Source: Dechloromonas denitrificans
GTDB taxonomy: Bacteria; Pseudomonadota; Gammaproteobacteria; Burkholderiales; Rhodocyclaceae
Direction: 5' to 3'
Length of the DNA: 64,000 nucleotides
NCBI RefSeq assembly: GCF_001551835.1
Contig: NZ_LODL01000010.1
Span: 62,570 to 126,569, forward strand
The notes under the pieces are model-generated. The model had not been told where the DNA came from, ran no database searches, and saw only the letters and a list, made by a program, of their open reading frames with translations. Shown here piece after piece: positions 4,587-34,619 of the stretch. The first letter of the stretch is position 1. Every line of letters starts with the position of its first letter. A program made the position numbers and the translations under genes.

Positions 4587-5112
4587 GGCGGATGACGGCG
4601 CGGCGGCCGACGATGACCAGCGCCAGCAGCGTCAGCAGCGGGTCGAACAGCACATCCCACAGATTGGCGAAGAGGCCGCTGGCGTAGCCGGCGAGGTCGA
4701 TGGCGAGGATCAGCAACCAGCTGTCCTGGCGCCGCCACCATAGCGCCGCAGCGACCGGCAGCAAGGCGACGAGCAGCGCCCACGGCTGGTAACCCAGGGC
4801 ATAGGGGTCGAACGCCCCCCAGCCCAGCGCCGCCGGATAAAACAAGGCAACGAAACCGAGCAGGCCGAGGGCCGGAGCGAAACTCAGCGGCGAAGGCTGG
4901 CGGTTGGCCAAGTGCAGGATGGCCAGTTGCAGCAAGGTCAGCGATGGCGTGCCGAAGGTGCCGTGCATGACCGGGGCGATGCCGACCAGCAAGGCGAGCG
5001 TCGTCGCCGCCAGCGCGACGCGGGCGCGCAGTTCGCCGAGTGGCAGCAAGGTGGCGAGGGCGCCAAAAATCAGCCCGTGGGCGAGTAGACCGTAGGCGGC
5101 CAGTGCATTCAT
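4564..5112 (-). CDS. Small multi-spanning membrane protein of the sialidase operon
   Basis: A 182-residue very hydrophobic protein with about six predicted membrane helices and Arg-rich cytoplasmic ends; I do not recognise the family. The start at 5112 is chosen because its ATG overlaps the stop of the sialidase-like gene (ATGA), indicating translational coupling; the longer frame upstream is just overlap with that gene. It is the last of three coupled genes (GT39-type transferase, sialidase-like protein, this one), so a supporting role in the same envelope glycan process is inferred. Its 3' end runs 23 bases into the convergent double-receiver gene. Confidence 0.7.
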   Translation of the reverse strand: MNALAAYGLLAHGLIFGALATLLPLGELRARVALAATTLALLVGIAPVMHGTFGTPSLTLLQLAILHLANRQPSPLSFAPALGLLGFVALFYPAALGWGAFDPYALGYQPWALLVALLPVAAALWWRRQDSWLLILAIDLAGYASGLFANLWDVLFDPLLTLLALVIVGRRAVIRLIASRTR

Positions 5113-11331: not shown

Positions 11332-11403
11332 CTTTGGTCTCCGGAAGCTGTTTTATTAGAAAGCGTTAATGTAGCCCGGCCAGCAGCGCGGCGGGAAGCG
11401 GCT

Positions 11404-14172: not shown

Positions 14173-14283
14173 TCTCTCTCCCCCGCTATTGTTTGGCGGC
14201 TAGAGTAGCGTGCTGGCCGGACTTTGTCTAAATGCCGCGTGCCGTCCATTGCTGCCGGCCAAGCGGTGCGGGGTGGCAAGCGG

Positions 14284-14289
14284 TAAAAT
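14284..14289 (+). promoter_or_regulatory. -10-like box directly before dnaE
   Basis: TAAAAT lies only eight bases before the dnaE ATG (14297). If it is the -10 element, transcription would begin at or next to the start codon, giving a leaderless mRNA; no ribosome binding site is visible. Confidence 0.35.
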
Positions 14290-14296
14290 TGCGCCC

Positions 14297-17749: not shown

Positions 17750-18216
17750 GCACACTGATCGATCAGCCGTTGCTGACGACGGTCAGCAACGAGGCCCGGC
17801 TGGCGCCGCGCCGCCGCAAGAACCGCAACTTCCATCCGGCCGACGATTATCCGGGGCATCGCCTGCTCAACGGCATCGAGCCCGATTCCTACGTGATGCC
17901 GCATTGCCATTACGATCCGCACAAGGATGAAACCATCCTCTGCCTGCGCGGCCGCCTGGGCGTTGTCCTTTTTTGCCCTTCTGGCGAGGTCGACCGCAGC
18001 ATTGTGCTGGCACCGGCCGGTGAGGTGGTCGGCATCGATATTCCGCACGGTGTTTTCCATACGGTGCTGGCCCTGGACAGTGGTACGGTGTTTTTCGAAG
18101 CCAAGGCCGGCCCCTATGTGCCGCTGAGTCTTGCGGAAAGGGCGGCGTGGGCCCCGGCCGAGGGCTCGCCCGAGGTGGCGCCTTACCTGGCCGCGCTGCA
18201 CCGCCTGTTCGCGTGA
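17746..18216 (+). CDS. WbuC-type cupin fold metalloprotein
   Basis: A 156-residue cupin. Metal ligands are suggested by MPHCHYDPHKDET (His residues about 47, 49 and 53, Glu about 56) and a later IPHGVFHT. It matches the WbuC family, named from O-antigen clusters but also found alone, with no well-established reaction. The start at 17746 overlaps the dnaE stop by four bases (ATGA), so it is translated together with dnaE although no functional link is known. Its stop is two bases from the stop of the convergent hybrid kinase gene. Confidence 0.82.
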   Translation: MSTLIDQPLLTTVSNEARLAPRRRKNRNFHPADDYPGHRLLNGIEPDSYVMPHCHYDPHKDETILCLRGRLGVVLFCPSGEVDRSIVLAPAGEVVGIDIPHGVFHTVLALDSGTVFFEAKAGPYVPLSLAERAAWAPAEGSPEVAPYLAALHRLFA

Positions 18217-18217
18217 A

Positions 18218-20338: not shown

Positions 20339-20387
20339 GCCGTCCTTCGGCAGGGGGAGGGGAGGGATATTGCTTCTGGCATCAGCG

Positions 20388-20393
20388 CATTGT
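20388..20393 (-). promoter_or_regulatory. Candidate -10 of hybrid kinase promoter
   Basis: On the minus strand GACAAT matches TATAAT at four of six positions and its centre is about 33 bases from the centre of the FNR-type box, the spacing of a class II FNR-activated promoter. Confidence 0.4.
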
Positions 20394-20416
20394 CATGCGC
20401 CAGGGATTTATATAAT

Positions 20417-20430
20417 TTGATGAATATCAA
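20417..20430. promoter_or_regulatory. Perfect FNR/Anr-type box
   Basis: TTGAT-GAAT-ATCAA matches the FNR/CRP-family anaerobic consensus TTGAT-N4-ATCAA at every defined base. It lies in the 115-base AT-rich spacer between the chemoreceptor stop (20454) and the hybrid kinase start (20338), both on the minus strand, so the kinase is the likely target. Confidence 0.75.
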
Positions 20431-20453
20431 ATACAGTATGGAAGTGTTTGATT

Positions 20454-21971
20454 TCAAACGACCATGTCGGATTTGAAGCCGATGCGAACCGCACCCCAGT
20501 GCCGGCCGTTGATGACAATCGGCATCGAGAGGTCGTTGAGGATTTCGCCGGTGTCGCGGACATAGGTCTGGAACAACGAGGACTTCTGGTTGCGGGCCAG
20601 TTTGATGCCGACCGGGTCGTTGAAGATCCGCTTGTGCCGGCACTTGGTCAGGTCGATCGCCGGATCGCCGCTCGGGGCATTCGAGAAGATGCCGTTGTGG
20701 GCCGGCGCGTAGCCGTTGCTGTCGACGGCCAGCGAGTAGGTCAGCCCCGGCACGTCGCGCAACGTGTCGTCGTACAGACGGGTCAGTTCGCTGTCGCACT
20801 GGCCGTCGTAGGCTGTCGTGAACCGTTTGGGGTTCGAGCCGGGGATATCCTTGTAGGCCTGGTCGAAAACATTGACGCCGCGTTCGGCCAGGCGCTGCAG
20901 GATGCCGGCCACGTCGTCGCGGAAGGCGGCGCACTTGTCGTGCAGCGTATCGAACTTGCTGTTGCCAGTGCGGAAATCGGCCAGCGTGCATTGCAGGTCT
21001 TCAGTCGATTCGCGCAGGGTTTTCGCCGAATCCAGACACTGCTTCATGCGGCCGGAGATATCGAGCGAATGATTGCGGATTTCCTCAACCTCGCCGTGGA
21101 TCGTCTGATTGCTCTCGCGCAGGTTGTAGATGGCGGAAGAAATCGTCGACAACTGCTCGGTCGTCTGCCGGAAGTCGCCCACCATTGTGGTCAGGTCGGC
21201 GGCCGAGGTTTCGATGTATTCGTTGGCACGGGTCACCTCGCCGACGATGGTCTGGGTCTTGGCCGAAGTGTCGGAAACGAGATTGATCATCGACTGGGTA
21301 TTCTGGCCAATGACCTGGGTTGCCGTCTTGACCTTTTCCGCCAGTTTTCGCACTTCGTCGGCGACCACGGCAAAGCCGCGCCCGGCTTCGCCGGCCCGGG
21401 CCGCCTCGATCGCCGCGTTGAGGGCGAGCAGGTTGGTCTGGTCGGAAATATCGTTGATCAGCGAAACGATTTCGTTGATCTTCATCGAACTGGTGTGCAG
21501 TTCACCGACCGTGGACGAGAAGTGCTCGATATGCTGGTTGGTCGAGCGCATCGTGCTCGCCACGGTTTCCATCTGGGTCAGCGAGCGCTGCGCGAGATCG
21601 AGATTGTTCTTGGTCGAGGCCTGGATGGCATCGGAGTTGGTAGCGACTTCGCCGACCGCCATATTGACCCGGTTGCTCGATTCAAAAACAGCGCTGGCCA
21701 GCGCTTCCTGGCGCCGCACCGCGTCGTCGGTCAGTTGCACCAGGTGGTTCATGCGGGCGGCGTCGGCGGCAATGCTGACGCTGCGTTCGCGGGCGTGGGA
21801 GATCAGGCCGCGGACGCGGCTGAAAAAGCGGTTGATATTGGCCGAAATGCGTCCTTCGGCATCGTGGCCAGTGGTGCCGACGGTCAGCGAGAGATCGGCG
21901 CTACCTTCGGCAATGGCGGCCAGGTCGCGGTCGATCTTGTTGAGCGAGGCGCTTTTTCCAAACAAGCCCAT
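20454..21971 (-). CDS. Soluble methyl-accepting chemotaxis protein
   Basis: A 505-residue chemoreceptor without any membrane helix. The start at 21971 ([12 protein letters not shown]) follows AGGAGA by six bases; the longer frame overlaps the upstream gene. Residues about 1-60 are HAMP-like, then the antiparallel coiled coil with the highly conserved tip [22 protein letters not shown], which contacts CheA and CheW. After the coiled coil a C-terminal domain of about 150 residues (around [14 protein letters not shown] to [10 protein letters not shown]) looks like a Cache/PAS-type sensor. A cytoplasmic receptor with the sensor at the C-terminus would monitor an internal signal such as energy or redox state. 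Confidence 0.9.
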
Positions 21972-22039
21972 GAATGTCTCCTGCGTATATTTTTTTTGAG
22001 GCCGGCCCGACTGGCGGCAAAGAGGGGCGGCTGAATGGC

Positions 22040-22064
22040 AAAACAGCACCTGGAAGGTGCTGTT
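22040..22064 (-). terminator. Terminator after HTH-receiver gene
   Basis: Nine-base perfect stem (22042-22050 with 22056-22064), five-base loop, and a short T run on the minus strand. It separates the HTH-receiver gene from the chemoreceptor gene. Confidence 0.6.
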
Positions 22065-22071
22065 CGTTCGG

Positions 22072-22662
22072 TCAGTAGGGGCGCTGGCGGGCGGCCAGTC
22101 GGCCGAGCAGGAAACCCTTGATTTCGTGGAAGGGAATCGGCTTGCCAAAAATGGTGACATCGGCCGGGACACCCTTATGGAGGACTTCTTCGCGGTCGAT
22201 GGCGCTGACGACGATGATGTCCATGCGGGCAAGGTCCGGGTTGGCGCGTAGATGACGGATCATTTCGAAACCGTCCATGCCCGGCATCATCAGGTCGGCG
22301 ATCAGGATGTCGGGGGCATTCTGGCCGACTTGCATCAGACCTTCGAACCCGTTATTGACCAGGCGCAGCTTGATCGGCAGGTTCCAGTGTTCGAAGGTGG
22401 CGCGGTACAGCGCCTGCAGGGTCGGGTCGTCTTCGGCAATCAGGACGTCGAGTTGGCCGCCGCTTTCCTGGACGCTCGGGGTCAGGGTCCGGCGGCGGGC
22501 CAGCATGGCCTCGACCGAGGCGGTCGGGATGCGGCGATGGCCGCCCGCTGTCTTCCAGGCCTCCAGCGCGCCGCTCTCCACCATGTTCTGCACAGTGCCC
22601 AGAGAAACACCAAGGCGCAGTGCCGCCTGGCGGGTGCTGAGGAATTCCGAGTCGGCCATCAT
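22072..22662 (-). CDS. Response regulator with N-terminal MerR/excisionase-type HTH
   Basis: A 196-residue protein with domains in unusual order: residues about 6-55 form an excisionase/MerR-like helix-turn-helix ([23 protein letters not shown]... TAGGHRRIP), and residues about 72-190 form a receiver with the acidic pair ED and acceptor Asp in [13 protein letters not shown]. Most response regulators have the receiver first. The switch lysine is present in FGKPIPF. It could be the DNA-binding partner of one of the neighbouring sensor proteins, since the hybrid kinase and chemoreceptor genes follow on the same strand. A terminator separates it from the chemoreceptor gene. Confidence 0.85.
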
Positions 22663-22720
22663 TTTTCCAGAATTGCAAAAGTGCTAAATTCTAGCCCCTT
22701 CCGGCCTGTTTTTGTAGCGT

Positions 22721-22755
22721 AAAAAAACCCCGATTAACAAGTAGTAATCGGGGTT
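22721..22755 (-). terminator. Terminator after peroxiredoxin gene
   Basis: Eleven-base perfect stem (22726-22736 with 22745-22755) and, on the minus strand, a run of seven T. It lies 42 bases beyond the peroxiredoxin stop. Confidence 0.92.
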
Positions 22756-22796
22756 GGCGGAAAGCGCACCGTCCAGCGGTGCGATTTCAGTGTCTT

Positions 22797-23396
22797 TTAC
22801 AGCTTCCTGGCGTTCTTTGCCAGGTAGGCGGCAACGCCTTCGGTCGAGGCGACCATGCCGGGCTTGCCCTTGTTCCAGCCGGCCGGGCAGACTTCGCCAT
22901 GCTCTTCGAAGAATTGCAGGGCATCGACCATGCGCAGCATTTCGTCGATGTTGCGACCGAGCGGCAGCATATTGACGACCTGATGCATGACGACGCCATC
23001 CTTGTCGATCAGGAAGGAACCGCGCAGCGCAACGCCGGCTTCTTCGAGTTCGACGTCATAGGCGCGGCAGATGTCGTGCTTGATGTCGGCGACCAGCGGA
23101 TAGCCGACCTGGCCGATGCCGCCGTCCTTGACTGCGGTGTTCTTCCAGGCCAGGTGGGTGAACTGGGAATCGATGGAAACGCCGATCACTTCGACGCCGC
23201 GCTGCTTGAATTCTTCCAGGCGGTGATCGAAGGCGATCAGTTCGGATGGGCAGACGAAGGTGAAGTCGAGCGGGTAGAAGAACAGGACAACCGGCTTGCC
23301 CTTGAAGTGGGAGAGCGTCAGGTCCTTGATTTCATTGTTGCCGTAGACGGCAGTGGCGGTGAAGTCGGGGGCTGGCTTGCCAACGAGAACGGCCAT
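22797..23396 (-). CDS. 2-Cys peroxiredoxin (AhpC/Prx1 type)
   Basis: A 199-residue typical 2-Cys peroxiredoxin. The peroxidatic cysteine is C49 in DFTFVCPSE, the resolving cysteine is C170 in EVCPAGW, and the C-terminal YLAKNARKL tail is the kind that makes these enzymes sensitive to overoxidation. It reduces hydrogen peroxide and organic peroxides with thioredoxin or AhpF; neither is encoded nearby. The start at 23396 follows AAGGAG by six bases, excluding the longer frame. It is divergent from the DAB-type locus and ends in a strong terminator. Confidence 0.95.
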
Positions 23397-23562: not shown

Positions 23563-25008
23563 GTGTTGAAGGTGCTGGTTTTCATGCCGGTGCTGGGGGC
23601 GGCGGCGGTGGCTGTGCTGCCGGCCCGGCGCGCCTTGCCGCTGTGGCAGCTGACGATGCTGTTCGCGCTGGCGGCGCTGGCCTATGTCGGCTGGCTGGCG
23701 GCGCGCTTCGACCCGGCCGGTGCGGCGATCCAGATGTTGGACAGCCGGGCCTGGAATGCCCGGCTCGGCACCTACTTCGCCCTCGGCGTCGATGGCATTT
23801 CGCTGGCCATGCTGCTGTTGACCGCCTTGCTCAGCCTGGTAGCCGTGCTCGTGTCGCGGCGGATGGAGGCGGGGGCGCGGCTCTATTTCGTCCTTGTCCT
23901 GCTTCTCGAATCGGCGATGTTCGGCGTGTTCACCGCTCGCGACTGGTCGCTGTTCTATGTCTTCTGGGAGGCGACGCTGTTGCCGCTGTTCTTCCTGATC
24001 GACCGTCTGGGCGGCCCGAACCGGCAGAAGGCGGCGCTCAATTTCTTTCTGTATACGCTGGGCGGTTCGGTCTTCATGCTGGTCGCGCTGCTCTTTCTCT
24101 ATGACGCGGCGCCCGGCCACAGCTTTGCGATGGCCGACATGGCCGAGGGCGGACGAGGCCTGCCGCTGCCGACGCAATTGCTGATCTTCGCCGGCCTGTT
24201 CATCGGCTTCGGCGTCAAGATGCCGGTTTTTCCGCTGCACGGCTGGTTGCCGCTGGCCCACGTCGAGGCGCCGAGCCCGGTCTCCATCCTGCTCTCCGGC
24301 GTGCTGCTCAAAATGGGCGCCTACGGCCTGATCCGCGCCGCCGAAACGCTGCCCGCCGCCTTGCTGGCGACGCAGGACTGGCTGGCCATCCTGGCCTTGA
24401 TCAGCCTGCTCTACGGCGGCATCCTCGCCTGGCGGCAGCAGGACTTGAAGGCGATGGTCGCCTACTCGTCGATCTCGCATATGGGCGTCGTCCTGCTCGG
24501 CATCGCCACGCTGAACGTCACCGGCCTGACCGGCGCGGTGTTCCAGATGGTGGCGCACGGGCTGAGCGCCGGCACCCTGTTCCTGATCGTCGGTCTGCTT
24601 TACCAGCGGACGCACAGCCGCGATCTGGCCGACTACCACTCGCTGCTCGGCCAAGCGCCGCGCTTTGCTTTCTTCATCGCTTTCGCGCTGCTCGCGGCGA
24701 TCGGCCTGCCGGGCAGTGCCGGCTTCATCGCCGAACTGCATGCCCTGCTCGGCGGCTTCGTGCGCTGGGGTGGCTGGGTGCTGCTGCTCGGCCTGGCCAT
24801 GCTGATCGGCGCCGCCTACAGCCTGCGCGTCATCGGTCGCCTGTGCCTGCCGGGCCCGGCAATGGTGCTGGCCGACATGACGCGGACCGAGACAAGTGCC
24901 GCCGCCATCCTCTGCGCCGCGCTGCTGCTGCTCGGCCTGTGGCCGGCGCCGCTGCTCGATCTGGTGGCGGGCAGCGTCGGCCAGCTCAGCCGTTTGTTCG
25001 GGAGTTGA
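23563..25008 (+). CDS. NuoM-like proton-conducting membrane subunit, first of DAB-type locus
   Basis: A 481-residue protein with about 13-14 membrane helices of the complex I antiporter-like family (PF00361). Residues essential in NuoM are recognisable: a membrane Glu in [10 protein letters not shown], Lys in [15 protein letters not shown], Lys in [14 protein letters not shown] and Glu in GFIAEL. I choose the GTG at 23563 because GGAGGGG lies eight bases before it; an upstream TTG (23536) is possible. The stop is one base before the dabA ATG. No other complex I genes are present, so it most likely belongs to the DabA complex and supplies an ion pathway, rather than NADH dehydrogenase. Confidence 0.88.
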
Positions 25009-25009
25009 G

Positions 25010-28000
25010 ATGGCGGGCGACCTGGACGATCTGCCGATCCGCGAGCGCCTGCAGCACTGGGTCGAGCACCTCTGCCACATCCTGCCGGCGCAAGCGCCGA
25101 TCCGCGATTTCGTCCATCACAACACGCTGCACGGCTTCCAGCACCTGCCATTCGCGGAAGCCCTGGGCGCCGCCCGGCGCCTGAGCGGGGCCCAGGTCTA
25201 TTGGCCGGAGGCCAACTTTCACGCCGCCTATGCCGCCGGCCGGATCGGCCCCGACGATTTGCAGGCGGCGCTCGACGATGCCGGCCTGGCCGGGCTCGAG
25301 GCGGAAGTGATCCGCGGCCTGCGCCGGCGGGACATCCTGGCGGCCAGCTTGCGCGAGCCGCTGACCCCGCCGACAGCGCATCGCACAGCTTGGGCGGCGC
25401 GCGAAACGGGCGGTTTGGCCGACCCCATTTTTGCCATTTCCGGCACGTTGACCGCAGGCATTGCCGAGGAAGTGCCCGAAACCTGGGAAGGGGCCGCACT
25501 GGCCCGCTGGAACGCCCTTTGCGAGCGGGTCGGTCGGGACTGGACGCTGCGCAGCCTGCTCGAATACCTGAGCGGCGAGGACGTGCTGGAAAAAGTGCGC
25601 AGCAGCTTGCAGCGCCATCTGGCGGCCCATCTCGATCTGGGCGTCGCCGCCTGGCGCAATCCGCAGCAGTGGCAGGGCTTCTTCGCCGCCTGGCGGGCCA
25701 GCGCCGGGCAGGACCTGGCCTGGGAAATCGACGATCTGCACAACGTACGCGAAGAGATCGTTCATCTGCCCGAACAGGCGCTTGATGTGCTGGTCGATGA
25801 ACTGGGTCGCCTGCTGCCCGACGAGCAACTGTGGCCGGGCTACCTCGAACGGCTGGCCCTGGAGCAGCCGGGCTGGGCCGGCATGTTCCTGTGGCGTGAC
25901 CGCAACCCGGGGCGGGGCGACGGCACCGGCGTCGCGATGCTCGACTACCTGGCCGTCCGCGTGTTGCTCGAACGCCTGCTCTGTGAAGACCTGATCCGCC
26001 GGCTGACCGGCGTGCCGATGGGCTTCGACGAACTGCGCGGCTACTTCACCACCGAACTGGCCGAGTTCGCGGTCCGCGACGCGCTGCGCCGGGGCGAGCT
26101 GAACGAAGAATTGCAGCACCGCGCCGCCCGCCTGCTCGAACCGGACGAACATGCCCCGGTGGACGACGCGGCCTGGGCAGCGCTGGCTGCCAGTATCGCG
26201 GCTAGCCGCCAGACAACGGCGCCGGCCGTGGCGGCCCGGCGGCTGGCCGGCCTGCTCGGGCAACTGGCGCTGACCCCGGCTGAAGCGGCCGGCCTGAGCC
26301 CTGACGATGCCATCGCCTTGCTCGCCGCCGCCGACAGCCTGGACGAACTGGCCCGCGGCCAGGTCTGGCTGTTGGCCTACGAACGCCATTACCGCGAACA
26401 GTTGTTCGCCGCGCTGAACGCCAATCAGGCGCGCCAGTACAGCCCGCCGATGCCCTCGGCCCAGGTCATCATGTGCATGGACGACCGTGAGGAAGGGACG
26501 CGTCGGCATCTCGAAGAGATCGCGCCGGATATCGCGACTTACGGCGCCGCCGGCTTTTTCGGCGTGCCGATCTACTGGCAGGGGCTGGACGATGCCGACA
26601 AGACGGCGCTCTGTCCGGTCGTCGTCCAGCCGACGCATCTGGTCCGCGAAACGGCCGAGCCCGGGGCCGAAGCCGCGCTGGCCGCGCATGCCGCTCGCCG
26701 CGAAAAACGGTTGCGCTGGCGCGAGCGGCTCTATCAGACGACGCGTCGCGCCGCATTCGGCGGCCCGCTGCTGAGCAGCCTGGCGGCGGTGCCGGCACTT
26801 GCCGCATTGACCGCGACGACGCTCGCCCCCGGCTGGTTCGGCGAGGCGCTGCAGCGCTGGCGACGCGGCTACGAAGGGCCGGTGGCCAGCCAACTGGCGC
26901 TCAACGCGGTCGGTGATGAAGCCGGCACGCCGAGCGCGCCGCAAGCCGGTTTGAGCGATGCCGAGCAGGTCGACCGCGTCGCTGCCTTCCTGCGCATGAT
27001 CGGCCTGAGCGAAGGCTTCGCGCCGCTCGTCCTGCTGCTCGGCCACGGTTCCGGCAGCCGCAACAATCCGCATCTTGCCGCCTACGACTGCGGTGCCTGT
27101 TCCGGCCGGCACGGCGGGCCGAACGCCCGCGTCTTCGCGGCGATGGCCAACCGCCCCGAGGTCCGGCGCGGCCTGGCCGAACGCGGTGTGTGCATCCCGG
27201 CCAGCAGCTGGTTCGTCGCCGCCGAACACAATACCTGCGACGACGCGATTGCCTGGTATGACCTCGATGACGTGCCCGAGCCTTTCCAGGCGGCACTCGA
27301 CAAACTACTGCAGCAGTTGAACGAAGCCTGCCGGGCGCATGCCGCCGAGCGCTGTCGCCGGCTGGCTTCGGCCCCGTTCAAGCCATCGCCGTGGCAGGCC
27401 CGGCAGCACGTCGTCGGGCGCAGCCACGATATTTCGCAGGCCCGGCCCGAACTCGGCCACGCGACTAATGCCGCCGCCTTCATCGGCCGCCGCCAGATGA
27501 GCCGCGGCCTCTTTCTCGACCGCCGCGTCTTTTTGATTTCCTACGACCCGACCGGCGACGATGATGGCCGCCTGGTCGAAAACATCCTGCTGGCCGCCGG
27601 CCCGGTCGGGGCCGGCATTGCCCTCGAATACTATTTCTCGACGGTCGATAACGAGCGTTTCGGTTGCGGTTCGAAGATCACCCACAACATCACCGGCCTG
27701 TTCGGCGTCATGGAGGGCGCCGATTCCGACCTGCGTACCGGCCTGCCCTGGCAAATGGTCGAGATCCACGAGCCGATGCGTCTGCTCGTCGTCGTCGAAC
27801 AGACGCCGGCGGTGCTGGCGGCCATTCTCCAGCGTCAGCCGCCGCTGCAGGAGCTGATCGACAACGCCTGGATCGTTTTGGCTTCTAAATGCCCGTTTAC
27901 CGCAGGCATCGCGCTGTATTGCCCGCGCCGCGGCTGGTTGCCCTGGTCCGGGTCGGCCGTGCTGCCGCAGGTGGCACAGTCGGCCGCCTGGTTTGCCGGC

Positions 28001-28048
28001 GAATCGGGGCCGCTGCCGCCGGCCGTCATCCTGGGGGCGCACGCATGA
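25010..28048 (+). CDS. dabA: DabA-like inorganic carbon transporter subunit (DUF2309)
   Basis: A 1012-residue protein of the DUF2309 family. In Halothiobacillus neapolitanus DabA, a beta-carbonic-anhydrase-like zinc site is formed by C351, D353, H524 and C539. Here the same pattern is intact: C489 and D491 in IMCMDDREE, H679 in LGHGSGSRNN and C694 in YDCGACSG, with the identical spacing within each pair. DabA with a NuoL-type partner hydrates CO2 to bicarbonate inside the cell, made one-way by a cation gradient. It is about 180 residues longer than that DabA, mostly before the first zinc ligand. It is coupled by ATGA to the NuoL-like gene and preceded after one base by the NuoM-like gene. Confidence 0.92.
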   Translation: MAGDLDDLPIRERLQHWVEHLCHILPAQAPIRDFVHHNTLHGFQHLPFAEALGAARRLSGAQVYWPEANFHAAYAAGRIGPDDLQAALDDAGLAGLEAEVIRGLRRRDILAASLREPLTPPTAHRTAWAARETGGLADPIFAISGTLTAGIAEEVPETWEGAALARWNALCERVGRDWTLRSLLEYLSGEDVLEKVRSSLQRHLAAHLDLGVAAWRNPQQWQGFFAAWRASAGQDLAWEIDDLHNVREEIVHLPEQALDVLVDELGRLLPDEQLWPGYLERLALEQPGWAGMFLWRDRNPGRGDGTGVAMLDYLAVRVLLERLLCEDLIRRLTGVPMGFDELRGYFTTELAEFAVRDALRRGELNEELQHRAARLLEPDEHAPVDDAAWAALAASIAASRQTTAPAVAARRLAGLLGQLALTPAEAAGLSPDDAIALLAAADSLDELARGQVWLLAYERHYREQLFAALNANQARQYSPPMPSAQVIMCMDDREEGTRRHLEEIAPDIATYGAAGFFGVPIYWQGLDDADKTALCPVVVQPTHLVRETAEPGAEAALAAHAARREKRLRWRERLYQTTRRAAFGGPLLSSLAAVPALAALTATTLAPGWFGEALQRWRRGYEGPVASQLALNAVGDEAGTPSAPQAGLSDAEQVDRVAAFLRMIGLSEGFAPLVLLLGHGSGSRNNPHLAAYDCGACSGRHGGPNARVFAAMANRPEVRRGLAERGVCIPASSWFVAAEHNTCDDAIAWYDLDDVPEPFQAALDKLLQQLNEACRAHAAERCRRLASAPFKPSPWQARQHVVGRSHDISQARPELGHATNAAAFIGRRQMSRGLFLDRRVFLISYDPTGDDDGRLVENILLAAGPVGAGIALEYYFSTVDNERFGCGSKITHNITGLFGVMEGADSDLRTGLPWQMVEIHEPMRLLVVVEQTPAVLAAILQRQPPLQELIDNAWIVLASKCPFTAGIALYCPRRGWLPWSGSAVLPQVAQSAAWFAGESGPLPPAVILGAHA

Positions 28049-29571
28049 ATCCGCTGTTGCACAGTCTGTCCGACGCCATCTGGCTGGTCCCGGCCCTGTC
28101 GCTGCTCGCCGTCGTCGTCACTGCCGCCCGCGTTCTGCTTGGGCGGGCGGTCGGCGATGCGGCCGAGCCGCTCACCGCCCGCCTCGCCTCGCTCGCTGCT
28201 TTCGCCGGTCTCGTCTTGCTGCTGGCGATCGACGGTCTGGCGCTGGCGCACGGTGCGCCGGGCCATCGCCGCCTCGGCCACTGGTTCGGCAGCGGCAACT
28301 GGGAGGCGACCTTCTCCTTCCTGCTCGACCCGCTGTCGCTGAGCATCAGTACGCTGACGGCGCTGATCGGCTGGCTGGTCATCCGTTTTTCGGCCAATTA
28401 CCTGCATCGCGAGGCCGGTTTTCACCGTTTCTTCATCGCGCTCTCCTTCTTCCTGGCCGGCATCCAGCTCGTACTGCTCGCCGGCAACGGCTTGCTCGCC
28501 TTCGTCGGCTGGGAGATGTGCGGTGTCTCCTCATTCCTGCTCATCGGCTACGCCTGGCAGCGCCCGGTGGCGACCGGCAATGCGCTGTTCGCCTTCGTCA
28601 CCAATCGCGGTGGCGATGCCGGTTTTCTGCTGGCCCTCGGCCTGGCCGCGGCCTGGCTTGGCGGTTTCGAATGGACGGCGCTGTCCAGGGCTTCGCAGAT
28701 CAGCGTCGTCAATGACCGCTTGCTGGTCATCGGCTTCGTCATCGCGGCGCTTGCCAAGTCGGCGCAACTACCGTTCACGCCGTGGATCACCCGGGCGCTG
28801 GAAGGGCCGACGCCGTCGTCGGCCATTTTCTACGGCGCGGTGATGGTGCATGCCGGCGTCTATCTGCTGCTCCGGCTGGAACCCTTGTTGCTGCAGGTGC
28901 CCGACGTGATGTTCGGGCTGGTCCTGGCCGGTGCGCTGACCGCGCTCTACGCCTGGTTGTGCGGCCTGGTGCAGAGCGACGTCAAGTCGGCGCTGGTCTT
29001 CGCCACCGTGTTCCAGGTGGCGCTGATGTTCGTTGAAATCGGCCTCGGCTGGACGACGCTGGCGCTTGTTCATCTCTGCCTGCATGCCGCGTGGCGGGCC
29101 TGGCACTTCCTGCTGGCGCCGTCCTGGCTGGTGCTGACCCGGCAGCGGCCGCCGCCACCGCCGGCCTGGCTGTGCCGCAACCAGTTGCTGTATACGGCGG
29201 CGCTGCAGCGTTTCTGGCTCGACAAGCTGAGTGAGGTTCTGCTCGTCAAGCCGACCGAGTCCTTCGCGCGCGACGTGCGCGGCCTGGAGGAGCATTTCAT
29301 CGACCATGCCATCGGCCAGCCGGGGCAGGGCCAGGCGGTCCATGCCGAGCGTCCGCTGGTGCTGGCCGACGGCTTGCCGGGCCAGGCGCTGGCCGCCGTC
29401 TCGGACGCCCTGCAGAGGATCGAGAACCGCCTGCTGCTGCGCGGCCGCGGCGGCACGGCGGAAAAGCTGCTGCACCGGCTGGGCAGCTATCTGCGCACGC
29501 TGGAAGGCCTGCTCGAACAGCCGCGCTATCTGATGATGGCGGTGATGGCGACTTTTGTGGTGATCCTGTGA
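28045..29571 (+). CDS. dabB: DabB-like NuoL-type membrane subunit
   Basis: A 508-residue antiporter-like protein with about 13 membrane helices. Key residues: Glu in LAFVGWEMCGVSSFLLIGY, Lys in ALAKSAQLPFTPWI followed by the NuoL-type EGPTPSSAIFYGAVMVHAGVYLL, and Lys in QSDVKSALVF. This order and the GWExxG motif place it with NuoL/MrpA and with DabB, the only membrane subunit needed in characterised DAB systems. After LVHLCLHAAWRAWHFLLAPS the protein leaves the NuoL pattern and ends in a soluble stretch of about 100 residues plus a final helix, lacking NuoL's long lateral helix. Start overlaps the dabA stop (ATGA), and its stop overlaps the next start. Confidence 0.88.
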   Translation: MNPLLHSLSDAIWLVPALSLLAVVVTAARVLLGRAVGDAAEPLTARLASLAAFAGLVLLLAIDGLALAHGAPGHRRLGHWFGSGNWEATFSFLLDPLSLSISTLTALIGWLVIRFSANYLHREAGFHRFFIALSFFLAGIQLVLLAGNGLLAFVGWEMCGVSSFLLIGYAWQRPVATGNALFAFVTNRGGDAGFLLALGLAAAWLGGFEWTALSRASQISVVNDRLLVIGFVIAALAKSAQLPFTPWITRALEGPTPSSAIFYGAVMVHAGVYLLLRLEPLLLQVPDVMFGLVLAGALTALYAWLCGLVQSDVKSALVFATVFQVALMFVEIGLGWTTLALVHLCLHAAWRAWHFLLAPSWLVLTRQRPPPPPAWLCRNQLLYTAALQRFWLDKLSEVLLVKPTESFARDVRGLEEHFIDHAIGQPGQGQAVHAERPLVLADGLPGQALAAVSDALQRIENRLLLRGRGGTAEKLLHRLGSYLRTLEGLLEQPRYLMMAVMATFVVIL

Positions 29572-31082
29572 TGAACGGCACGCTCGGCAGCCTCAGCGAA
29601 GTTTTCTGGTACGAACAGGCCGGCCTGCCCTTGCTGCTGCTCCTGCAATTGCTGCCGCTGTTCGGCGCCGCCGTGGTTTTTGCCTTCAAGGAGCGGTCGA
29701 CCGCAGTCCTCGCCGGCAAGCTCTTCGCGCTGGCCGAACTGCTGCTCGCCATCGTCGTCGTCAGCCGTCTCCAGCCGACCAGCACCGCCCTGCAACTGGC
29801 CGAGCGCTTCGCGCCGCTGGCCTACCATGTCGGGGTCGATGGGGTCAGCCTGATCTTCGTGCTGGTCGCCGCCTTGCTGACCTTCCTGATGACGCTGTAC
29901 GGCATGAGCCGCGGCATGATTTCGCCGGGCCGGTTGTTCGCCGTGCTGTTGCTGGCCGAGGCCGGCCTGGTCGGGATGCTGGTGACGCTCAATGTCGCCT
30001 GGTTTGCCGCCTTTTCGGCGCTGGAATTGTGGGCGGTCGTCTATCTGCTCCGGCGCTGGGCCTCGTCGCATGCCGAAACCCAGGCCCTGGCGCGTTTTGT
30101 TCAGTACCAGGCTTTCGGCTGGGGGCTATTTGCCGCCGGCTGCGTCGTGCTCGGCTGGGGGCATGCCGAAGCGCATGCCGGGCGCTGGAGTTTCGACCTG
30201 TTTGATCTGATCGGCGCGGTGCCGGTCGGCAAGTTCCAGACGGCGGCCTTCTACCTGCTGTTTTACGGGCTGGCGGTGCGCACGCCGCTCTTTCCGCTGC
30301 ACGGCTGGCTGCCGAACATGGCGCAGCACGGCCTGATCGCCGTCGCCCCGGCGCTGATGGTCGGCGTCAAGGTCGGCATCTACGGCATGTTCCGCTTCGT
30401 GCTGCCGCTGACCCCGGTCGCCGTCGAGTACTGGCAGCCTTACGTCGTCGGCTTCGCCGGGGCCGGTGTTTTCTTCACCGCTGCGCTTGCTTTCCAGCAG
30501 ACCAACCTGCGCCGCCTGCTTGCCTTTGCCGTGGTCAGCCACACCAGCCTGCTGGTGATTGGCGTTTTCAGTCTGCACGAAGCCGGCATTCAGGGGGCGA
30601 TGTTGCTCGCCGCCAATTTCGGGCTGGCGGCGACCGGCATGTGGTTCATCGTCGGCTTCGTTTTCCGCCGTACCGGGACGACCGAGTTGCACGAACTGTC
30701 CGGCCTCTTCGAGCGCATTCCCTTCCTCGCCATCGCCTTTCTCGGCTTCGGCCTGGCCATTGTCGGCATGCCCGGCACGCCAGGTTTCGACGCCGCCCAC
30801 TTGATCCTTGAGGCGGCTATCGACCAGTTTGGGGCGCTGCTCACGGTGGCGACCGCGCTCGGCAACGTCGCCGCGGCCGGCTTCCTGCTCTGGGCCTTCC
30901 AGCGAGCCTTCCTGTCGCAGGCAAAAAGCGGTGCCTACGATGTGGACCGCACGCTGCCGATGGAATATGTCGTCTGCGGCATCGCGCTGGCCGCCATGCT
31001 GGCCATCGGCTTCTTCACCGAACCCTGGCTGCATTTGACCGAAAGCGCCAGCCAGGCGGCGGCTGCGAGGTTTGCCCGATGA
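29571..31082 (+). CDS. NuoM-like membrane subunit, second copy (Arg in place of channel Lys)
   Basis: A 503-residue PF00361 protein with about 14 membrane helices. The membrane Glu is in AAFSALELWAVVYLL and a Lys in VGVKVGIYGMFR, but the lysine of the broken helix is replaced by arginine ([14 protein letters not shown]), and the late Glu region reads TPGFDAAHL. It is clearly diverged from the first and third NuoM-like subunits, so it is not a recent duplicate. I start at 29571, where TGATG overlaps the previous stop; a GTG three bases earlier is possible. It is coupled to the next gene by ATGA. A distinct place in a multi-subunit ion channel is inferred. Confidence 0.85.
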   Translation: MNGTLGSLSEVFWYEQAGLPLLLLLQLLPLFGAAVVFAFKERSTAVLAGKLFALAELLLAIVVVSRLQPTSTALQLAERFAPLAYHVGVDGVSLIFVLVAALLTFLMTLYGMSRGMISPGRLFAVLLLAEAGLVGMLVTLNVAWFAAFSALELWAVVYLLRRWASSHAETQALARFVQYQAFGWGLFAAGCVVLGWGHAEAHAGRWSFDLFDLIGAVPVGKFQTAAFYLLFYGLAVRTPLFPLHGWLPNMAQHGLIAVAPALMVGVKVGIYGMFRFVLPLTPVAVEYWQPYVVGFAGAGVFFTAALAFQQTNLRRLLAFAVVSHTSLLVIGVFSLHEAGIQGAMLLAANFGLAATGMWFIVGFVFRRTGTTELHELSGLFERIPFLAIAFLGFGLAIVGMPGTPGFDAAHLILEAAIDQFGALLTVATALGNVAAAGFLLWAFQRAFLSQAKSGAYDVDRTLPMEYVVCGIALAAMLAIGFFTEPWLHLTESASQAAAARFAR

Positions 31083-32536
31083 AACTGCCGCTGCTCTCGC
31101 TGCTCGTCTTCCTGCCGCTGCTCGGCGCCGGCCTGCTCTGGTTGCTGCCGGCCCGCGCCACCCGCTGGTTGACGGCGGCGAGCATGCTGGCGACGCTGGC
31201 GCTCGGCGTGGCGGCGCTGGTCGCCTACCAACCGGCCGGAGCGCGCTTCCAGTTGCTCGAACAGGCGAGCTGGATTGCCAGCCTGAACGTGCATTACCGG
31301 CTCGGCGTCGATGGCCTGTCCATCCTCTTCCTGCCGGCCACCGCCTTGCTCTTCCTCGGTTCGCTGGTCGCCTGCTGGAATGTCGTGCAGACCTCGGCCC
31401 GGCTGCATTACAGCCTGTTGCTGCTGTTGCAGACGGCGATCCTAGGCATCTTCTGCGCCCTCGACACCGTGCTGTTCTTCGTCTTCTGGGAACTGACGCT
31501 GGTGCCGCTCTACTTCCTGCTCGGCCGCTGGGGTGTCAGTAGCAGCAGCCCGCAGGCGGCGGCGCGCTATTTCCTGCTCATGCTGGCCGGCGGCATCCCG
31601 CTGCTGCTCGCTTTCGTCCTGCTCGCCGCCAGCCAGCCGGTGCCGACCTTCGACCTGACGGTGCTGCTCGACGCCCAGCTGCCGCGCTCGACGCAGACGG
31701 CGGTATTCCTGCTCTGCCTGCTCGGTTTCGGCGTCAAGGTGCCGCTGGTGCCGATGCATACCTGGTTGCCGCAGTTCGCGCTGGCCGCGCCGGGCTCGCT
31801 GACTGCCCTGCTGCTCGGCCTCAAGCTCGGTGCTTTCGGCCTGATCCGCTTTGCCGTGCCACTGGCCCCGGCCGCGGCGCAGGACATGCACTGGCTGCTG
31901 GCCGGCCTCGGCACCGTCGCCATCCTCTACGGCGCGGTCGGCATGCTGGCCCAGACCAATCTGCGGGTCGGCCTGGCCTACGCCAGCATCTGCCACGTCG
32001 GCCTGGCCGTGCTCGGCCTGGCGTCCTTCACGGCGCAGGGTACGCAGGGCGCGGTGTCGCTGCTGCTCAGTTTTTCGGTGGCGACCGGCGGCGCTTTCCT
32101 GCTTCTCGAATTCCTCCGTCAGCGGACCGGTTCGACCGACATCCATGCCCTGGGCGGCGCCGCCAAAACCATGCCGCTGCTTGCCACCGGCTTCCTGATC
32201 TGCGGCCTGGCCGGGGTCGGCATGCCGGGGACCAGCAGTTTTCCCGGCGAGTTCCTGTTGATCATCGCCGCGCTGCACAGCCATACCGGGGCCGGCATGG
32301 CGGCGCTGTTTGGCCTGTCGATCGCGGCCGGCGGCTTCCTGGCACTTTATCGCAAGGCCTTCTTCGGTCCGGTGACGCGGCCGGAAGTGAGCCAGGCGCA
32401 GGATCTGCGGCCGCGCGAATGGGCCGTGCTGGTGGCGCTGATCGTGATGATCGTGGCGATCGGCATTTACCCGGGGCCGTGGATCGAGATCGTCCGCCCG
32501 GCCGCCGAGGCCTGGGCGGCCGGACTGGCGCGTTGA
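31079..32536 (+). CDS. NuoM-like membrane subunit, third copy
   Basis: A 485-residue PF00361 protein with about 14 membrane helices and the full charged set: Glu in FVFWELTLVPLYFLL, Lys in GVKVPLVPMHTWLP, Lys in LGLKLGAFGLIR and Glu in SFPGEFLLI. It is the last gene of the operon, started by an ATGA overlap. It ends 37 bases before the stop of the convergent phnA-type gene; a weak seven-base stem at 32539-32558 without a T run may slow transcription there. Like its neighbours it has no accompanying Nuo peripheral-arm genes, so membership of a DabA-centred complex is the best reading. Confidence 0.87.
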   Translation: MKLPLLSLLVFLPLLGAGLLWLLPARATRWLTAASMLATLALGVAALVAYQPAGARFQLLEQASWIASLNVHYRLGVDGLSILFLPATALLFLGSLVACWNVVQTSARLHYSLLLLLQTAILGIFCALDTVLFFVFWELTLVPLYFLLGRWGVSSSSPQAAARYFLLMLAGGIPLLLAFVLLAASQPVPTFDLTVLLDAQLPRSTQTAVFLLCLLGFGVKVPLVPMHTWLPQFALAAPGSLTALLLGLKLGAFGLIRFAVPLAPAAAQDMHWLLAGLGTVAILYGAVGMLAQTNLRVGLAYASICHVGLAVLGLASFTAQGTQGAVSLLLSFSVATGGAFLLLEFLRQRTGSTDIHALGGAAKTMPLLATGFLICGLAGVGMPGTSSFPGEFLLIIAALHSHTGAGMAALFGLSIAAGGFLALYRKAFFGPVTRPEVSQAQDLRPREWAVLVALIVMIVAIGIYPGPWIEIVRPAAEAWAAGLAR

Positions 32537-32927: not shown

Positions 32928-34619
32928 TTAGTAATCTTCTTCGCTGCCGCCCATCAGGTTGGGCAGCAGGATGTAGGCGCGCTGCAGGGCGGCCGCGAGG
33001 TCGGCGCAGACGTTGTCGTCGCCGAGGTGGTCGATGAAACCGGAGCGGTAGAGCAGCGAGCCGGGTTGCGAGTTGAGGCCGCAGACGAGCAGCGTGCAGC
33101 CACGCTTCTTCAATTTGTCGAGCAGGTTTTCCAGACCTTCGAGGCCGGTGGTGTCGAGCTGGATCAGTTGCGTCATGTCGAGGATGACGACTTCCGGATG
33201 GCCGGCCGCCGGGTCGAGCAGCGCTTCGAGCTTGTTCACGGCGCCGAAGAACAGTGAGCCAAACAACTGCCAGGCGGCGACGCGCATCGAGCCGTCCGGG
33301 TAGAGGAATTGCGGTTCGCTGGCTTCTTCGCGCAAGTGGCGGCGCTCGACGCGGGTCAGTTCCGACATCCGGTAGATGAAGAACAGGCAGGCCAGCACCA
33401 TGCCGAGCTCGACGGCGATGGTCAGGTCGAAGACGACGGTGACGAAGAATGTGGCGAGCAGGATGACCCGGTAGTTGTAGGAGTAGCGGCGCAGTTCCTT
33501 GAATTCGTGCCATTCGCCCATGTTGACCGCAACCACCATGACAATTGCCGACAAGGTGGCGAGCGGCACGTAGGCGGCAAGCGGCGCGGCGACCAGCACG
33601 ATCCCGAGCAGGACCAGGGCGTGGATGATGCCGGCAATCGGCGTCCGGCCACCGGTCTTGACGTTGGTCGTGGTGCGGGCAATGGCGCCGGTCGCCGCGA
33701 AGCCGCCGAAGAGCGGGGCGACGATGTTGGCCAGGCCCTGGGCGATCAATTCCTGGTTGGGGTCGTGGCGGTCGTCGATCTGGCTGTCGGCGACGCGGGC
33801 CGAGAGCAGCGATTCGATGGCACCGAGCAGGGCGATGGTGATGGCCGGCGAAATCAGCTTGCCGAAATCGTGGATCGACAGGCTGGGCAAGCCGATGTTG
33901 GGCAGTTCCTGCGGAATGCCGTTGAAGCGGCTGCCGATGGTCTCGACCGGCAGGTCAAACAAATAAGCGACCAGCGTGCCGACGACCAGCACGGCGAGCG
34001 GCCCCGGGGCTCGGCGCAGCACGCCAACGTACTGGGCCAGCTTGTTGTAGAAAATCAGGAAGACGAAGCAGGTGCTGGCCAGGCCGAGCGTCGGAAGGTC
34101 CACGGTATGGGCGTGGGCGGCCAGCGTCTTGATGCGGAGAAAGAACTCGGCCGGCAGGCTGTCGATCTTCAGGCCGAAGAAATCCTTGAGCTGGGCGAGA
34201 AAGATGACGACGGCGATGCCGTTGGTGAAGCCGATGACGACGGTGACCGGGATGAAGCGGATCAGTTGTCCCATCCGGGCGAGGCCCATGCCGAGCAGGA
34301 AAAGGCCGGCCAGGATGGTCGCCCCCATCAGGTTGGCGAAGCCGTGCATGGCGACGATGCCATAGATGATGGGAATGAAGGCGCCGGTCGGGCCGCCGAT
34401 CTGCACCCGCGAGCCGCCGAACAGCGAAATGATCAGGCCGGCGACGATCGCCGTCCAGATGCCGGCCGTCGGCGAGCAGCCGGAGGCGATGGCGAAGGCC
34501 ATGGCCAGTGGGAGGGCTAGTACGCCAACCGTGATGCCCGCCGCGAGATCCTTGCCGAACTGCGCGCGGTCGTAGCTTGGCAGGCAATCCAGCAGCTTGG
34601 GGCGGAAGGCGATTTTCAT
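32928..34619 (-). CDS. SulP family anion transporter with STAS domain
   Basis: A 563-residue transporter with about 12-14 membrane helices in two repeats and a C-terminal STAS domain (about 440-555; LDMTQLIQLDTTGLEGLENLL is the STAS core). The N-terminal substrate region GITVGVLALPLAMAFAIASG is typical of SulP. Substrates in the family include sulfate, dicarboxylates and bicarbonate (BicA in cyanobacteria), and sequence alone does not settle which. Its position convergent with the DAB-type operon makes bicarbonate worth testing. It is divergent from a ribbon-helix-helix gene whose promoter region carries short direct repeats. Confidence 0.92.
   Translation of the reverse strand: MKIAFRPKLLDCLPSYDRAQFGKDLAAGITVGVLALPLAMAFAIASGCSPTAGIWTAIVAGLIISLFGGSRVQIGGPTGAFIPIIYGIVAMHGFANLMGATILAGLFLLGMGLARMGQLIRFIPVTVVIGFTNGIAVVIFLAQLKDFFGLKIDSLPAEFFLRIKTLAAHAHTVDLPTLGLASTCFVFLIFYNKLAQYVGVLRRAPGPLAVLVVGTLVAYLFDLPVETIGSRFNGIPQELPNIGLPSLSIHDFGKLISPAITIALLGAIESLLSARVADSQIDDRHDPNQELIAQGLANIVAPLFGGFAATGAIARTTTNVKTGGRTPIAGIIHALVLLGIVLVAAPLAAYVPLATLSAIVMVVAVNMGEWHEFKELRRYSYNYRVILLATFFVTVVFDLTIAVELGMVLACLFFIYRMSELTRVERRHLREEASEPQFLYPDGSMRVAAWQLFGSLFFGAVNKLEALLDPAAGHPEVVILDMTQLIQLDTTGLEGLENLLDKLKKRGCTLLVCGLNSQPGSLLYRSGFIDHLGDDNVCADLAAALQRAYILLPNLMGGSEEDY

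What the first reader, a model, noticed from the sequence alone, without database searches (positions are those of the whole stretch)
23563..32536. Five-gene DAB-type inorganic carbon locus with four antiporter-like subunits around one DabA
Characterised DAB systems consist of DabA and a single NuoL-like DabB. Here NuoM-like, DabA, NuoL-like, NuoM-like and NuoM-like genes form one operon: the first two are one base apart and the rest overlap by stop-start coupling. No complex I peripheral-arm gene is present. DabA has the full zinc ligand set (C489, D491, H679, C694). The locus could encode an expanded CO2-trapping complex with several ion pathways, which would be a different energetic design from DabAB. 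That the genes are adjacent and coupled is seen; the joint complex is inferred.
Basis: partly seen in the sequence, partly recalled or inferred. Interest (0 to 1): 0.85.

Follow-up and report, generated by a model that had tools for sequence, protein, structure and literature searches.

The report
Five-part bacterial CO2-trapping membrane machine
A bacterial gene cluster joins a CO2-capturing enzyme to four proton-channel-like proteins instead of the usual one; the cluster is conserved in many nitrifying, methane-eating and wastewater bacteria, and its parts suggest that the proton-driven motor has moved to other proteins than in the one such machine whose structure is known.

Summary
One tight operon (23563-32536, +) encodes NuoM-like M1, DabA, NuoL-like L, and NuoM-like M2 and M3, with no complex I arm genes. 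The exact order occurs in 55 of the 80 best-matching loci of a named genome collection (nitrifiers, methanotrophs, Accumulibacter, Azonexus, Magnetococcales); 16 of the other 25 are cut by contig ends.

The DabA zinc site is intact (ligands in 113 of 113 rows). Both halves of the proton-coupling site of the H. neapolitanus DAB2 structure are missing: the essential finger Glu444 is Glu in 0 of 113 (77 of 83 other DabA), and L lacks the helices that receive the finger (60 of 62 L counted have one TM-like segment there). M1 keeps the NuoM channel residues checked; M3 keeps the four charged ones but not a TM11 His; M2 has lost two acids. L and M2 are one protein in five assemblies, and all four rearranged genomes examined keep all parts.

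Most likely it is a DAB-type vectorial CO2-hydration complex whose motor sits in NuoM-like subunits. That is inferred: nothing was tested biochemically and no structure could be predicted. A 2017 paper already noted NuoM and SulP genes beside such operons.

The parts
23563..25008 (+). M1: NuoM-like antiporter subunit with the NuoM channel residues checked (E144, K234, K265, E407 equivalents and the TM11 His)
   Evidence: PF00361 E 1e-68; TIGR01972 NDH_I_M 461.7 bits, cut-off 263.8; each residue in 66 or 67 of 67 M1
25010..28048 (+). DabA (1012 aa, long form); zinc site C489/H679/C694 with D491-R493 dyad; no Glu at the DAB2 finger position (Ser there)
   Evidence: PF10070 E 1.2e-245; 9rd0_A DabA2 E 9e-77; residue counts
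28045..29571 (+). L: NuoL/DabB-like subunit, front part (to about residue 360) intact, TM12-15 missing, C-terminal stretch plus one last TM
   Evidence: PF00662 and PF00361; hhalign to DabB and NuoL over the front 355-356 columns only; TM count; weak NF005626 C-terminal matches in four relatives
29571..31082 (+). M2: degenerate NuoM-like subunit (no E144, no E407, Arg for K234, K265 kept); fused to L in five assemblies
   Evidence: PF00361 E 1.5e-34; residues; fusions; ATG start
31079..32536 (+). M3: NuoM-like subunit with E144, K234, K265 and E407 equivalents kept, Phe in place of the TM11 His
   Evidence: PF00361 E 5e-52; residues
32928..34619 (-). SulP-family anion transporter beside the operon, possible functional associate
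   Evidence: PF00916 E 1.1e-91 with STAS domain; a homologue lies beside 35 of the 84 loci clustered

Best explanation
The operon encodes a proton-motive-force-driven, one-way CO2-hydrating complex of the DabA family (CO2 to bicarbonate in the cytoplasm), built as a complex-I-like membrane arm of four antiporter-like subunits that carries DabA. DabA does the chemistry with the same zinc site as DAB2 (shown by conservation). In DAB2 the proton path is made by the DabA finger (Glu444) inserted at TM12-13 of DabB. Here both the finger Glu and those helices are absent (shown from sequence), so L is most likely an adaptor that holds DabA and keeps the NuoL-type ion-pair residues (E144, D178, K229) for talking to a neighbour. 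Proton flow is most likely carried by M1 and M3, which keep the charged residues of a NuoM channel, and passed on to DabA through the ion-pair chain, with M2 as the degenerate link next to L (inferred). The product bicarbonate would feed RuBisCO in most hosts, and other carboxylases in hosts without RuBisCO such as this one (inferred).
For: DabA family and intact catalytic site: PF10070; C351/H524/C539 in 113 of 113, D353 in 112 and R355 in 111 of 113 five-gene-type rows (109 distinct). Loss of the DAB2 coupling site: finger column Glu in 0 of 113 (24 Asp, 89 without an acid) against 77 of 83 other DabA rows; of the 89 rows without an acid only 2 have an acid within six residues. Beyond the NuoL H338 position L has one TM-like segment in 60 of the 62 counted (two in the other 2), DabB 3-4 in 56 of 66 counted, NuoL 3-5 in 12 of 12. 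Intermediates: the two relatives with DabA, L and one extra antiporter (L065, L246) have the same truncated L; the single-antiporter relatives L248, L122 and L123 keep further helices. Motor residues: E144 in L 68/68, M1 66/67, M3 67/67 (1 gap), M2 0/68, two-gene DabB 3/84; E407 in M1 66/67, M3 64/65 (3 gaps), M2 0/68; K265 in M1 67/67, M2 68/68, M3 66/66. One unit: exact order in 55 of 80 loci; one branch each for L, M1, M2 and M3 (a quick tree with long-branch warnings); pairwise tree-distance correlations 0.84-0.94 over 67 loci; L-M2 fusions in L161 (same contig as L259), L167, L190, L204 and L260; M1-L-M2-M3 contiguous without DabA, which sits on another contig, in G472. RuBisCO in 11 of 14 five-gene genomes. 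Mechanism of DAB2: PMC13144422, abstract and sections 4, 8, 11 and 12 read.
Against: M3 has Phe in 67 of 67 rows where NuoM and M1 have the TM11 His (H338 column), so its channel may not be complete. The window's own genome and two same-genus genomes have no RuBisCO, and its genome has two beta-carbonic anhydrases, so a CO2-concentrating role is not obvious there. 24 of 113 rows have Asp at the finger position, so part of the clade may still use a finger acid. The match of the L tail to the NuoL lateral helix is weak (4 of 10 fragments, E 0.0085-0.031; unrelated families appear in the same scan from E 0.017; hhalign probability 1.2%). L191 is a DabA with neither M1 nor L found in 4.0 kb before and 2.9 kb after it. 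Tree congruence is also expected from shared vertical descent, and no outside gene was used as control. Energetically, coupling several protons per CO2 would be far more than needed (at about 150 mV one proton already shifts the balance by about 10^2.5; established thermodynamics), so not every subunit need pump.
Confidence: 0.53

Rival explanations
1. DabA and L alone make the CO2-hydrating enzyme; M1-M3 form a separate Mrp-like cation/proton antiporter that is only co-expressed, for example for pH or Na+ balance.
For: DabA+DabB suffices in DAB2 (PMC13144422, sections read). M1, and M3 for its charged residues, keep antiporter residue sets.
Against: L lacks TM12-15 and DabA lacks the finger Glu, so the DAB2 proton path cannot be complete in DabA+L. 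L and M2 are one protein in five assemblies. The four antiporter genes stay together without DabA in G472. No Mrp small-subunit gene was found in the window operon, whose genes follow each other without gaps.
Confidence: 0.16
2. A Na+- or anion-coupled bicarbonate importer, as argued for MpsAB, working with the neighbouring SulP transporter.
For: A SulP gene lies beside 35 of 84 loci clustered. MpsAB has been argued to use sodium (PMC13144422, sections 4 and 11). A related DabA (L247) sits in a whole Mrp-type Na+/H+ antiporter operon with a SulP gene.
Against: The catalytic CO2-hydration residues are fully conserved. DAB2 kept full activity without sodium (PMC13144422, section 11). The ion of these subunits cannot be told from sequence here.
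Confidence: 0.13
3. The machine runs the other way: DabA catalyses an exergonic reaction and the antiporter array exports ions (the 2017 COGNAT proposal).
For: Proposed in PMC5700660 for this gene group before the function of DabA was known.
Against: The DabA zinc site is that of a carbonic-anhydrase-like enzyme. CO2 hydration yields about one proton's worth of energy even at 1000-fold disequilibrium (established thermodynamics), too little for several pumps.
Confidence: 0.07
4. Ordinary two-gene DAB with complex I duplicates that hitch-hike and decay.
For: M2 has lost two acids of the channel and M3 one His.
Against: Order and spacing conserved over many genera; M2 has its own invariant residues (13 rows); all parts kept in four of four rearranged genomes examined.
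Confidence: 0.03

Closest known systems
DAB2 (DabA2-DabB2) of Halothiobacillus neapolitanus, PDB 9rd0; two-gene DAC/DAB systems
   Same: PF10070 protein with the same Zn, Asp-Arg site; adjacent NuoL-like PF00361 partner
   Different: One antiporter subunit, DabB, with TM12-15 and a DabA finger Glu444; here four antiporter-like subunits, no finger Glu, and no TM12-15 in L
DAB1 of H. neapolitanus (DabA1, DabB1 and a small membrane protein; PMC13144422, section 4)
   Same: More than two subunits; long DabA (length of DabA1 recalled)
   Different: Only one antiporter-like subunit. The long DabA rows that I take as DAB1-like (not compared with DabA1 itself) keep the finger Glu (motifs such as FITVEAIG) and lie on another branch of the DabA tree
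COGNAT 'clade C' ybcC operons (PMC5700660, 2017)
   Same: Very probably the same group: DabA/YbcC gene upstream of a NuoL gene, with NuoM (COG1008) and SulP (COG0659) genes nearby
   Different: The passages read give no gene number, order, residues or intermediates; function was then unknown; no experiment
Respiratory complex I membrane arm (NuoL/M/N)
   Same: Set of homologous antiporter subunits with E144/K229-K234 residues; L front half like NuoL
   Different: No peripheral arm and no quinone or NADH subunits in the locus; DabA in place of the redox arm; L truncated
Cyanobacterial NDH-1MS CO2-hydrating complexes (named in PMC13144422; CupA details recalled)
   Same: CO2-hydrating subunit working with complex-I-type antiporter subunits
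   Different: Driven by ferredoxin oxidation through a redox arm; catalytic subunit unrelated as far as recalled, not compared here

Membership tests
DabA protein family (PF10070) | Match over the curated cut-off along the whole profile | tested here: met
   817.9 bits against a cut-off of 25, profile 1-747 of 747
DAB/DAC vectorial carbonic anhydrase | Zn ligands Cys2His and Asp-Arg dyad of DabA | tested here: met
   113/113 for the ligands, 112/113 Asp, 111/113 Arg
DAB/DAC vectorial carbonic anhydrase | Adjacent NuoL-like DabB subunit | tested here: met
   L: PF00361 + PF00662; 100% hhalign probability to DabB over 355 columns
DAB2-type (two-subunit) mechanism | DabA finger Glu444 forming the periplasmic half-channel | tested here: not met
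   Ser in the window; 0 of 113 Glu, 24 Asp
DAB2-type (two-subunit) mechanism | DabB TM12-15 that receive the finger | tested here: not met
   60 of 62 L counted (of 68) have a single TM-like segment beyond the H338 position; hydropathy only, no structure
DAB/DAC vectorial carbonic anhydrase | Rescue of a carbonic-anhydrase-deficient E. coli, CO2 as substrate, dependence on proton-motive force | not testable with these tools
   needs experiment
Respiratory complex I | Peripheral-arm and quinone-site subunits in the locus | tested here: not met
   none among the operon and flanking genes scanned; the genome's separate complex I L/M/N genes are on C19
Mrp-type cation/proton antiporter | MrpE/F/G/B/C small subunits in the locus | tested here: not met
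   no room for them inside the gapless window operon, none among the flanking genes scanned; present in the related locus L247
COGNAT clade C operons | DabA gene upstream of the nuoL homologue with COG1008 and COG0659 genes near | tested here: met
   gene order, NuoM models, SulP; their supplementary tree was not seen, so identity of the clade is inferred

The most novel reading that the evidence does not exclude
A distinct class of PMF-driven CO2-hydrating machine in which the proton motor has been moved out of the catalytic pair: the DabB-like subunit has lost its output half and DabA its finger acid, and NuoM-type channels in other subunits (M1, M3) drive DabA by long-range ion-pair coupling, i.e. 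a complex I membrane arm run as a motor on a carbonic anhydrase instead of a redox arm. L and M2 may share one composite channel.
Probability: 0.38. Interest if true: 0.87.

Novelty: new variant of a known kind. Interest (0 to 1): 0.7.

Why it matters
Long-range coupling in complex I is hard to test because redox chemistry, quinone and pumping are entangled. Here nature seems to have put the same antiporter array on a simple enzyme, so the coupling could be read out by growth of a carbonic-anhydrase mutant. Each of the 16 five-gene genomes sampled in the order shows a single DabA gene (at most two candidates per genome were scored), so this system is probably their only one. It occurs in nitrifiers, methanotrophs and polyphosphate-accumulating wastewater bacteria, whose carbon supply matters for N2O, methane and phosphate removal. 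It also warns against annotating these genes as complex I NuoL/NuoM.

Tried and rejected
Hydropathy and profile comparison were used instead, so TM counts are estimates; no fold search was possible. Considered and rejected: that the operon is a duplicated complex I (no arm genes; three further adjacent PF00361 genes of complex I type in 13 of 13 five-gene genomes); that a RuBisCO link explains the window (no RuBisCO in this genome); that it is plasmid-borne (123 plasmid records hold a DabA, none covers 80% of the query). A further Mrp-type DabA operon like L247 was looked for in the two best matches to its DabA in a phylum search: G920 turned out five-gene, G775 two-gene. One row labelled DabB in the antiporter tree (B_L049_7398) is a misfit ORF with a branch of 6.4 and should be ignored; it is also among the 86 DabB rows counted. 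The 113 five-gene-type DabA rows are 16 from order loci with the five-gene arrangement, 81 from the 80 best loci (L155 has two; loci cut by contig ends included) and 16 that score over 1000 bits; four are duplicates of the same contig. The split DabA of G492 was left out of these rows. The 13 complete loci from the order search were chosen after their order was seen, so the unbiased count is 55 of 80. In recounting I found that M3 lacks the TM11 His and that 3 of 84 two-gene DabB rows keep E144; the odds of the best explanation and of the novel case were lowered by 0.02 for the first.
Full report
THE LOCUS. M1, M2 and M3 pass the NuoM subfamily cut-off of NCBIfam (461.7, 268.4 and 417.7 bits against 263.8). 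L matches NuoL models only over about its first 360 residues. DabA matches the solved DabA2 of H. neapolitanus, 9rd0_A, E 9e-77; L matches DabB2 9rd0_B over residues 12-362 only. On one side lies a SulP transporter on the opposite strand; on the other, divergently, a peroxiredoxin. The genome (G000, 4.24 Mb, 41 contigs) has one DabA, a separate set of complex I L/M/N genes, no RuBisCO large subunit and two beta-carbonic anhydrases. The closest named relatives are Rhodocyclaceae, Azonexus and Dechloromonas genomes.

CONSERVATION. In 399 genomes of the order, 90 hold a DabA. Regions around these places were fetched (one place below the cut-off, in G171, was not). Sixteen genomes have the five-gene type: 13 complete loci, and three cut by contig ends or split over contigs (L057, L062, L066+L133). 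The other DabA loci show one antiporter-like gene per DabA, apart from L065 (two), a short extra fragment in L043, and loci cut at contig ends. In the named genome collection a scan with the 13-row DabA alignment A1 kept the best 80 of 586 relatives, itself a capped list. 55 of these 80 show exactly M1-DabA-L-M2-M3. Of the other 25, 16 are cut by contig ends; L158, L184 and L181 differ only through overlapping ORFs; L161, L167, L190 and L204 have L-M2 fusions; L155 (Thiothrix) repeats DabA-L; and L191 has a DabA with no M1 or L found nearby (the grouping is mine). Named hosts include Nitrosospira sp. NpAV, Nitrosomonas oligotropha Nm45, a Nitrotoga MAG, Methylobacter marinus, M. psychrophilus and M. 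tundripaludum, Methylomonas methanica, Azonexus fungiphilus and A. hydrophilus, Accumulibacter, Thiobacillus and Thiothrix MAGs, and several Magnetococcales. In 369 genomes of the class, 83 match the five-gene DabA profile A4. Eighteen are of the five-gene type (17 at 1033 bits or more, plus one split over two contigs); the next best scores 645. Of these 18, eleven (the window's genome included) have the genes together, one of them with M1 cut by the contig end and one with M3 split over two frames; three are split or cut by contig ends but agree as far as they go (G492, G715, G449); four are rearranged (G596, G466, G725, G472). Two genomes outside the class (G920, G805) also have the five-gene order.

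ONE UNIT. All four rearranged genomes still hold all five parts. In G472 the four antiporter genes M1-L-M2-M3 are contiguous and DabA lies on another contig, so the membrane set holds together on its own. In G596 and G466 the gene beside DabA is one protein of about 1050 aa that scores as both L (644-660 bits) and M2 (525-533); the same fusion is seen in L167, L190 and L204. L161 and L259 are the same contig, so five assemblies in all. A tree of 123 rows places L, M1, M2 and M3 each on one branch, with M2 and M3 as sisters; it is a quick tree and carries long-branch warnings. Pairwise distances among the five trees correlate at 0.84-0.94 over 67 loci, none of 1000 shuffles reaching that; vertical descent alone would also give much of this, and no outside control gene was used. 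Thirteen of 13 five-gene genomes carry three further adjacent PF00361 genes of complex I type. A SulP homologue lies beside 35 of the 84 loci clustered, many with short flanks: 44 ORFs, of which 22 upstream on the same strand, 13 downstream on the other strand as in the window, 6 upstream on the other strand and 3 downstream on the same strand.

WHAT IS KEPT AND WHAT IS LOST. The DAB2 cryo-EM paper (PMC13144422; abstract and sections 4, 8, 11 and 12 read) defines the zinc ligands C351, H524 and C539, the D353-R355 dyad, and a DabA finger whose Glu444 enters DabB beside displaced TM12-14 helices and takes the place of NuoL Lys399/Asp400; changing Glu444 abolishes activity. In 113 five-gene-type DabA rows (109 distinct) the ligands are complete (113/113), Asp 112/113, Arg 111/113. 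The Glu444 column holds Glu in none, Asp in 24 and no acid in 89, against Glu in 77, Asp in 3, Gln in 2 and Ala in 1 of 83 other DabA rows. Only 2 of the 89 have an acid within six residues, so this is not a small alignment shift. L keeps the NuoL residues R175 (67/68), D178 (68/68), K229 (67/68), E144 (68/68) and H338 (68/68); K342 is Arg (68/68) and H254 is Tyr (67/68). Two-gene DabB keeps E144 in only 3 of 84; in DAB2 this position is Ile151 and restoring Glu halves growth yield (PMC13144422, section 11). Retention of E144 in L, M1 and M3 fits subunits that have neighbours to signal to. After the HxxxH motif L has one TM-like segment in 60 of 62, DabB three or four in 56 of 66, NuoL three to five in 12 of 12; 6 of 68 L and 20 of 86 DabB rows were not counted because the motif pattern did not match. 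Four of ten L tails weakly match the same C-terminal part of the NdhF model NF005626 (profile 575-634 of 675, E 0.0085-0.031), which suggests a remnant of the NuoL lateral helix; the other six did not, and unrelated families appear in the same scan from E 0.017. M1 keeps E144, K234, K265, E407 and the TM11 His (66 or 67 of 67 each). M3 keeps E144 (67/67), K234 (66/66), K265 (66/66) and E407 (64/65), gaps aside, but has Phe for the TM11 His in 67 of 67. M2 has Arg for K234 (68/68), keeps K265 (68/68), and has lost E144 and E407 (0/68 each) and the His; it has its own invariant residues, such as D408 and H411, in the TM12 motif (13 rows). E. coli NuoM numbers and NuoL H254/H334/H338/K342 are recalled; the NuoL numbers 144, 175, 178, 229 and 399 are in the paper.

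INTERMEDIATES. In the DabA tree (63 rows, quick method) the 30 five-gene rows are one clade (SH-aLRT 100). Their sister set (99) is L246, L065, L248, L122 and L123, all with DabA upstream of L (L248 has a long branch). L246 and L065 have one extra antiporter and an L that ends soon after the HxxxH motif; L248, L122 and L123 show no extra antiporter and an L with several further TM segments. None of these five has Glu at the finger column (P, A, L, Q, Q). On this small sample the loss of the finger Glu is shared by the wider group, and truncation of L goes with the gain of extra antiporter subunits.

MECHANISM. Shown: family, catalytic residues, loss of both sides of the DAB2 coupling site, charged channel residues kept in M1 and M3, degenerate M2, unit inheritance. 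Inferred: DabA docks on L; protons run through M1 and M3 (and possibly a composite L-M2 path); the ion-pair chain E144/K229-K234 passes the signal to L and DabA, as proposed for complex I; the product is cytoplasmic bicarbonate. More subunits need not mean more protons per CO2: at about 150 mV one proton gives about 14.5 kJ/mol, or a shift of about 10^2.5, and four would give a useless 10^10. The array may rather allow work at low PMF, or be a legacy of the arm. RuBisCO is present in 11 of 14 five-gene genomes; in the window's genus three of the four five-gene genomes lack it, so supply of bicarbonate to other carboxylases is the likely use there.

WHAT IS KNOWN. The COGNAT paper (PMC5700660; passages read) found in 2017 that where ybcC (DabA) lies upstream of the nuoL homologue the neighbourhood often holds SulP and NuoM genes, and guessed that more membrane genes mean more ions moved. 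Its supplement was not seen. A 2026 paper (PMC13399641, passages) mentions only the two-gene MpsA/COG3002 pair, and PMC12628692 (passages) a two-gene DAC. Nine full-text searches for DUF2309, COG3002, DabA with NuoM and related terms listed no paper that by title and abstract start appears to describe the five-gene system; only the four papers named here were opened, and most subscription papers are not in that library. I recall, without having seen them here, a 2019 paper naming DABs and a 2021 paper on one- to three-subunit complexes. The verdict is therefore a well-conserved variant of a known kind, whose existence was glimpsed before and whose rewired coupling site I found nowhere described in those searches.

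Noticed in passing
A second, different expanded DAB; its finger acid is Asp.
   Followed up: partly
L155 (Thiothrix MAG NZ_JAQTLS010000002.1), 8448-23126: Order M1-DabA-L-DabA-L-M2-M3: the DabA-L pair is doubled within one set of M subunits.
   Followed up: no
L251 and L271 (genome G472): DabA and the four antiporter genes are on different contigs; the DabA there has Pro at the finger position and one of the lowest scores of the clade.
   Followed up: partly
L191 (Magnetococcales MAG JADGCM010000056.1), 4036-7182: A five-gene-type DabA with no M1 or L gene detected within the 4.0 kb before and 2.9 kb after it on a 10-kb contig.
   Followed up: no
window 32928-34619 (-): SulP transporter, below the curated cut-offs of the named bicarbonate (BicA) and dicarboxylate (DauA) models; recurs beside many five-gene loci and might be the bicarbonate partner.
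   Followed up: partly
window 22072-22662 (-): Short protein with a helix-turn-helix (HTH_17) in front of a response-regulator receiver domain, the reverse of the usual order of response regulators ('usual' is recalled).
   Followed up: no
window 18218-20338 (-): Hybrid histidine kinase with a Tll0287-like sensor domain near the operon.
   Followed up: no
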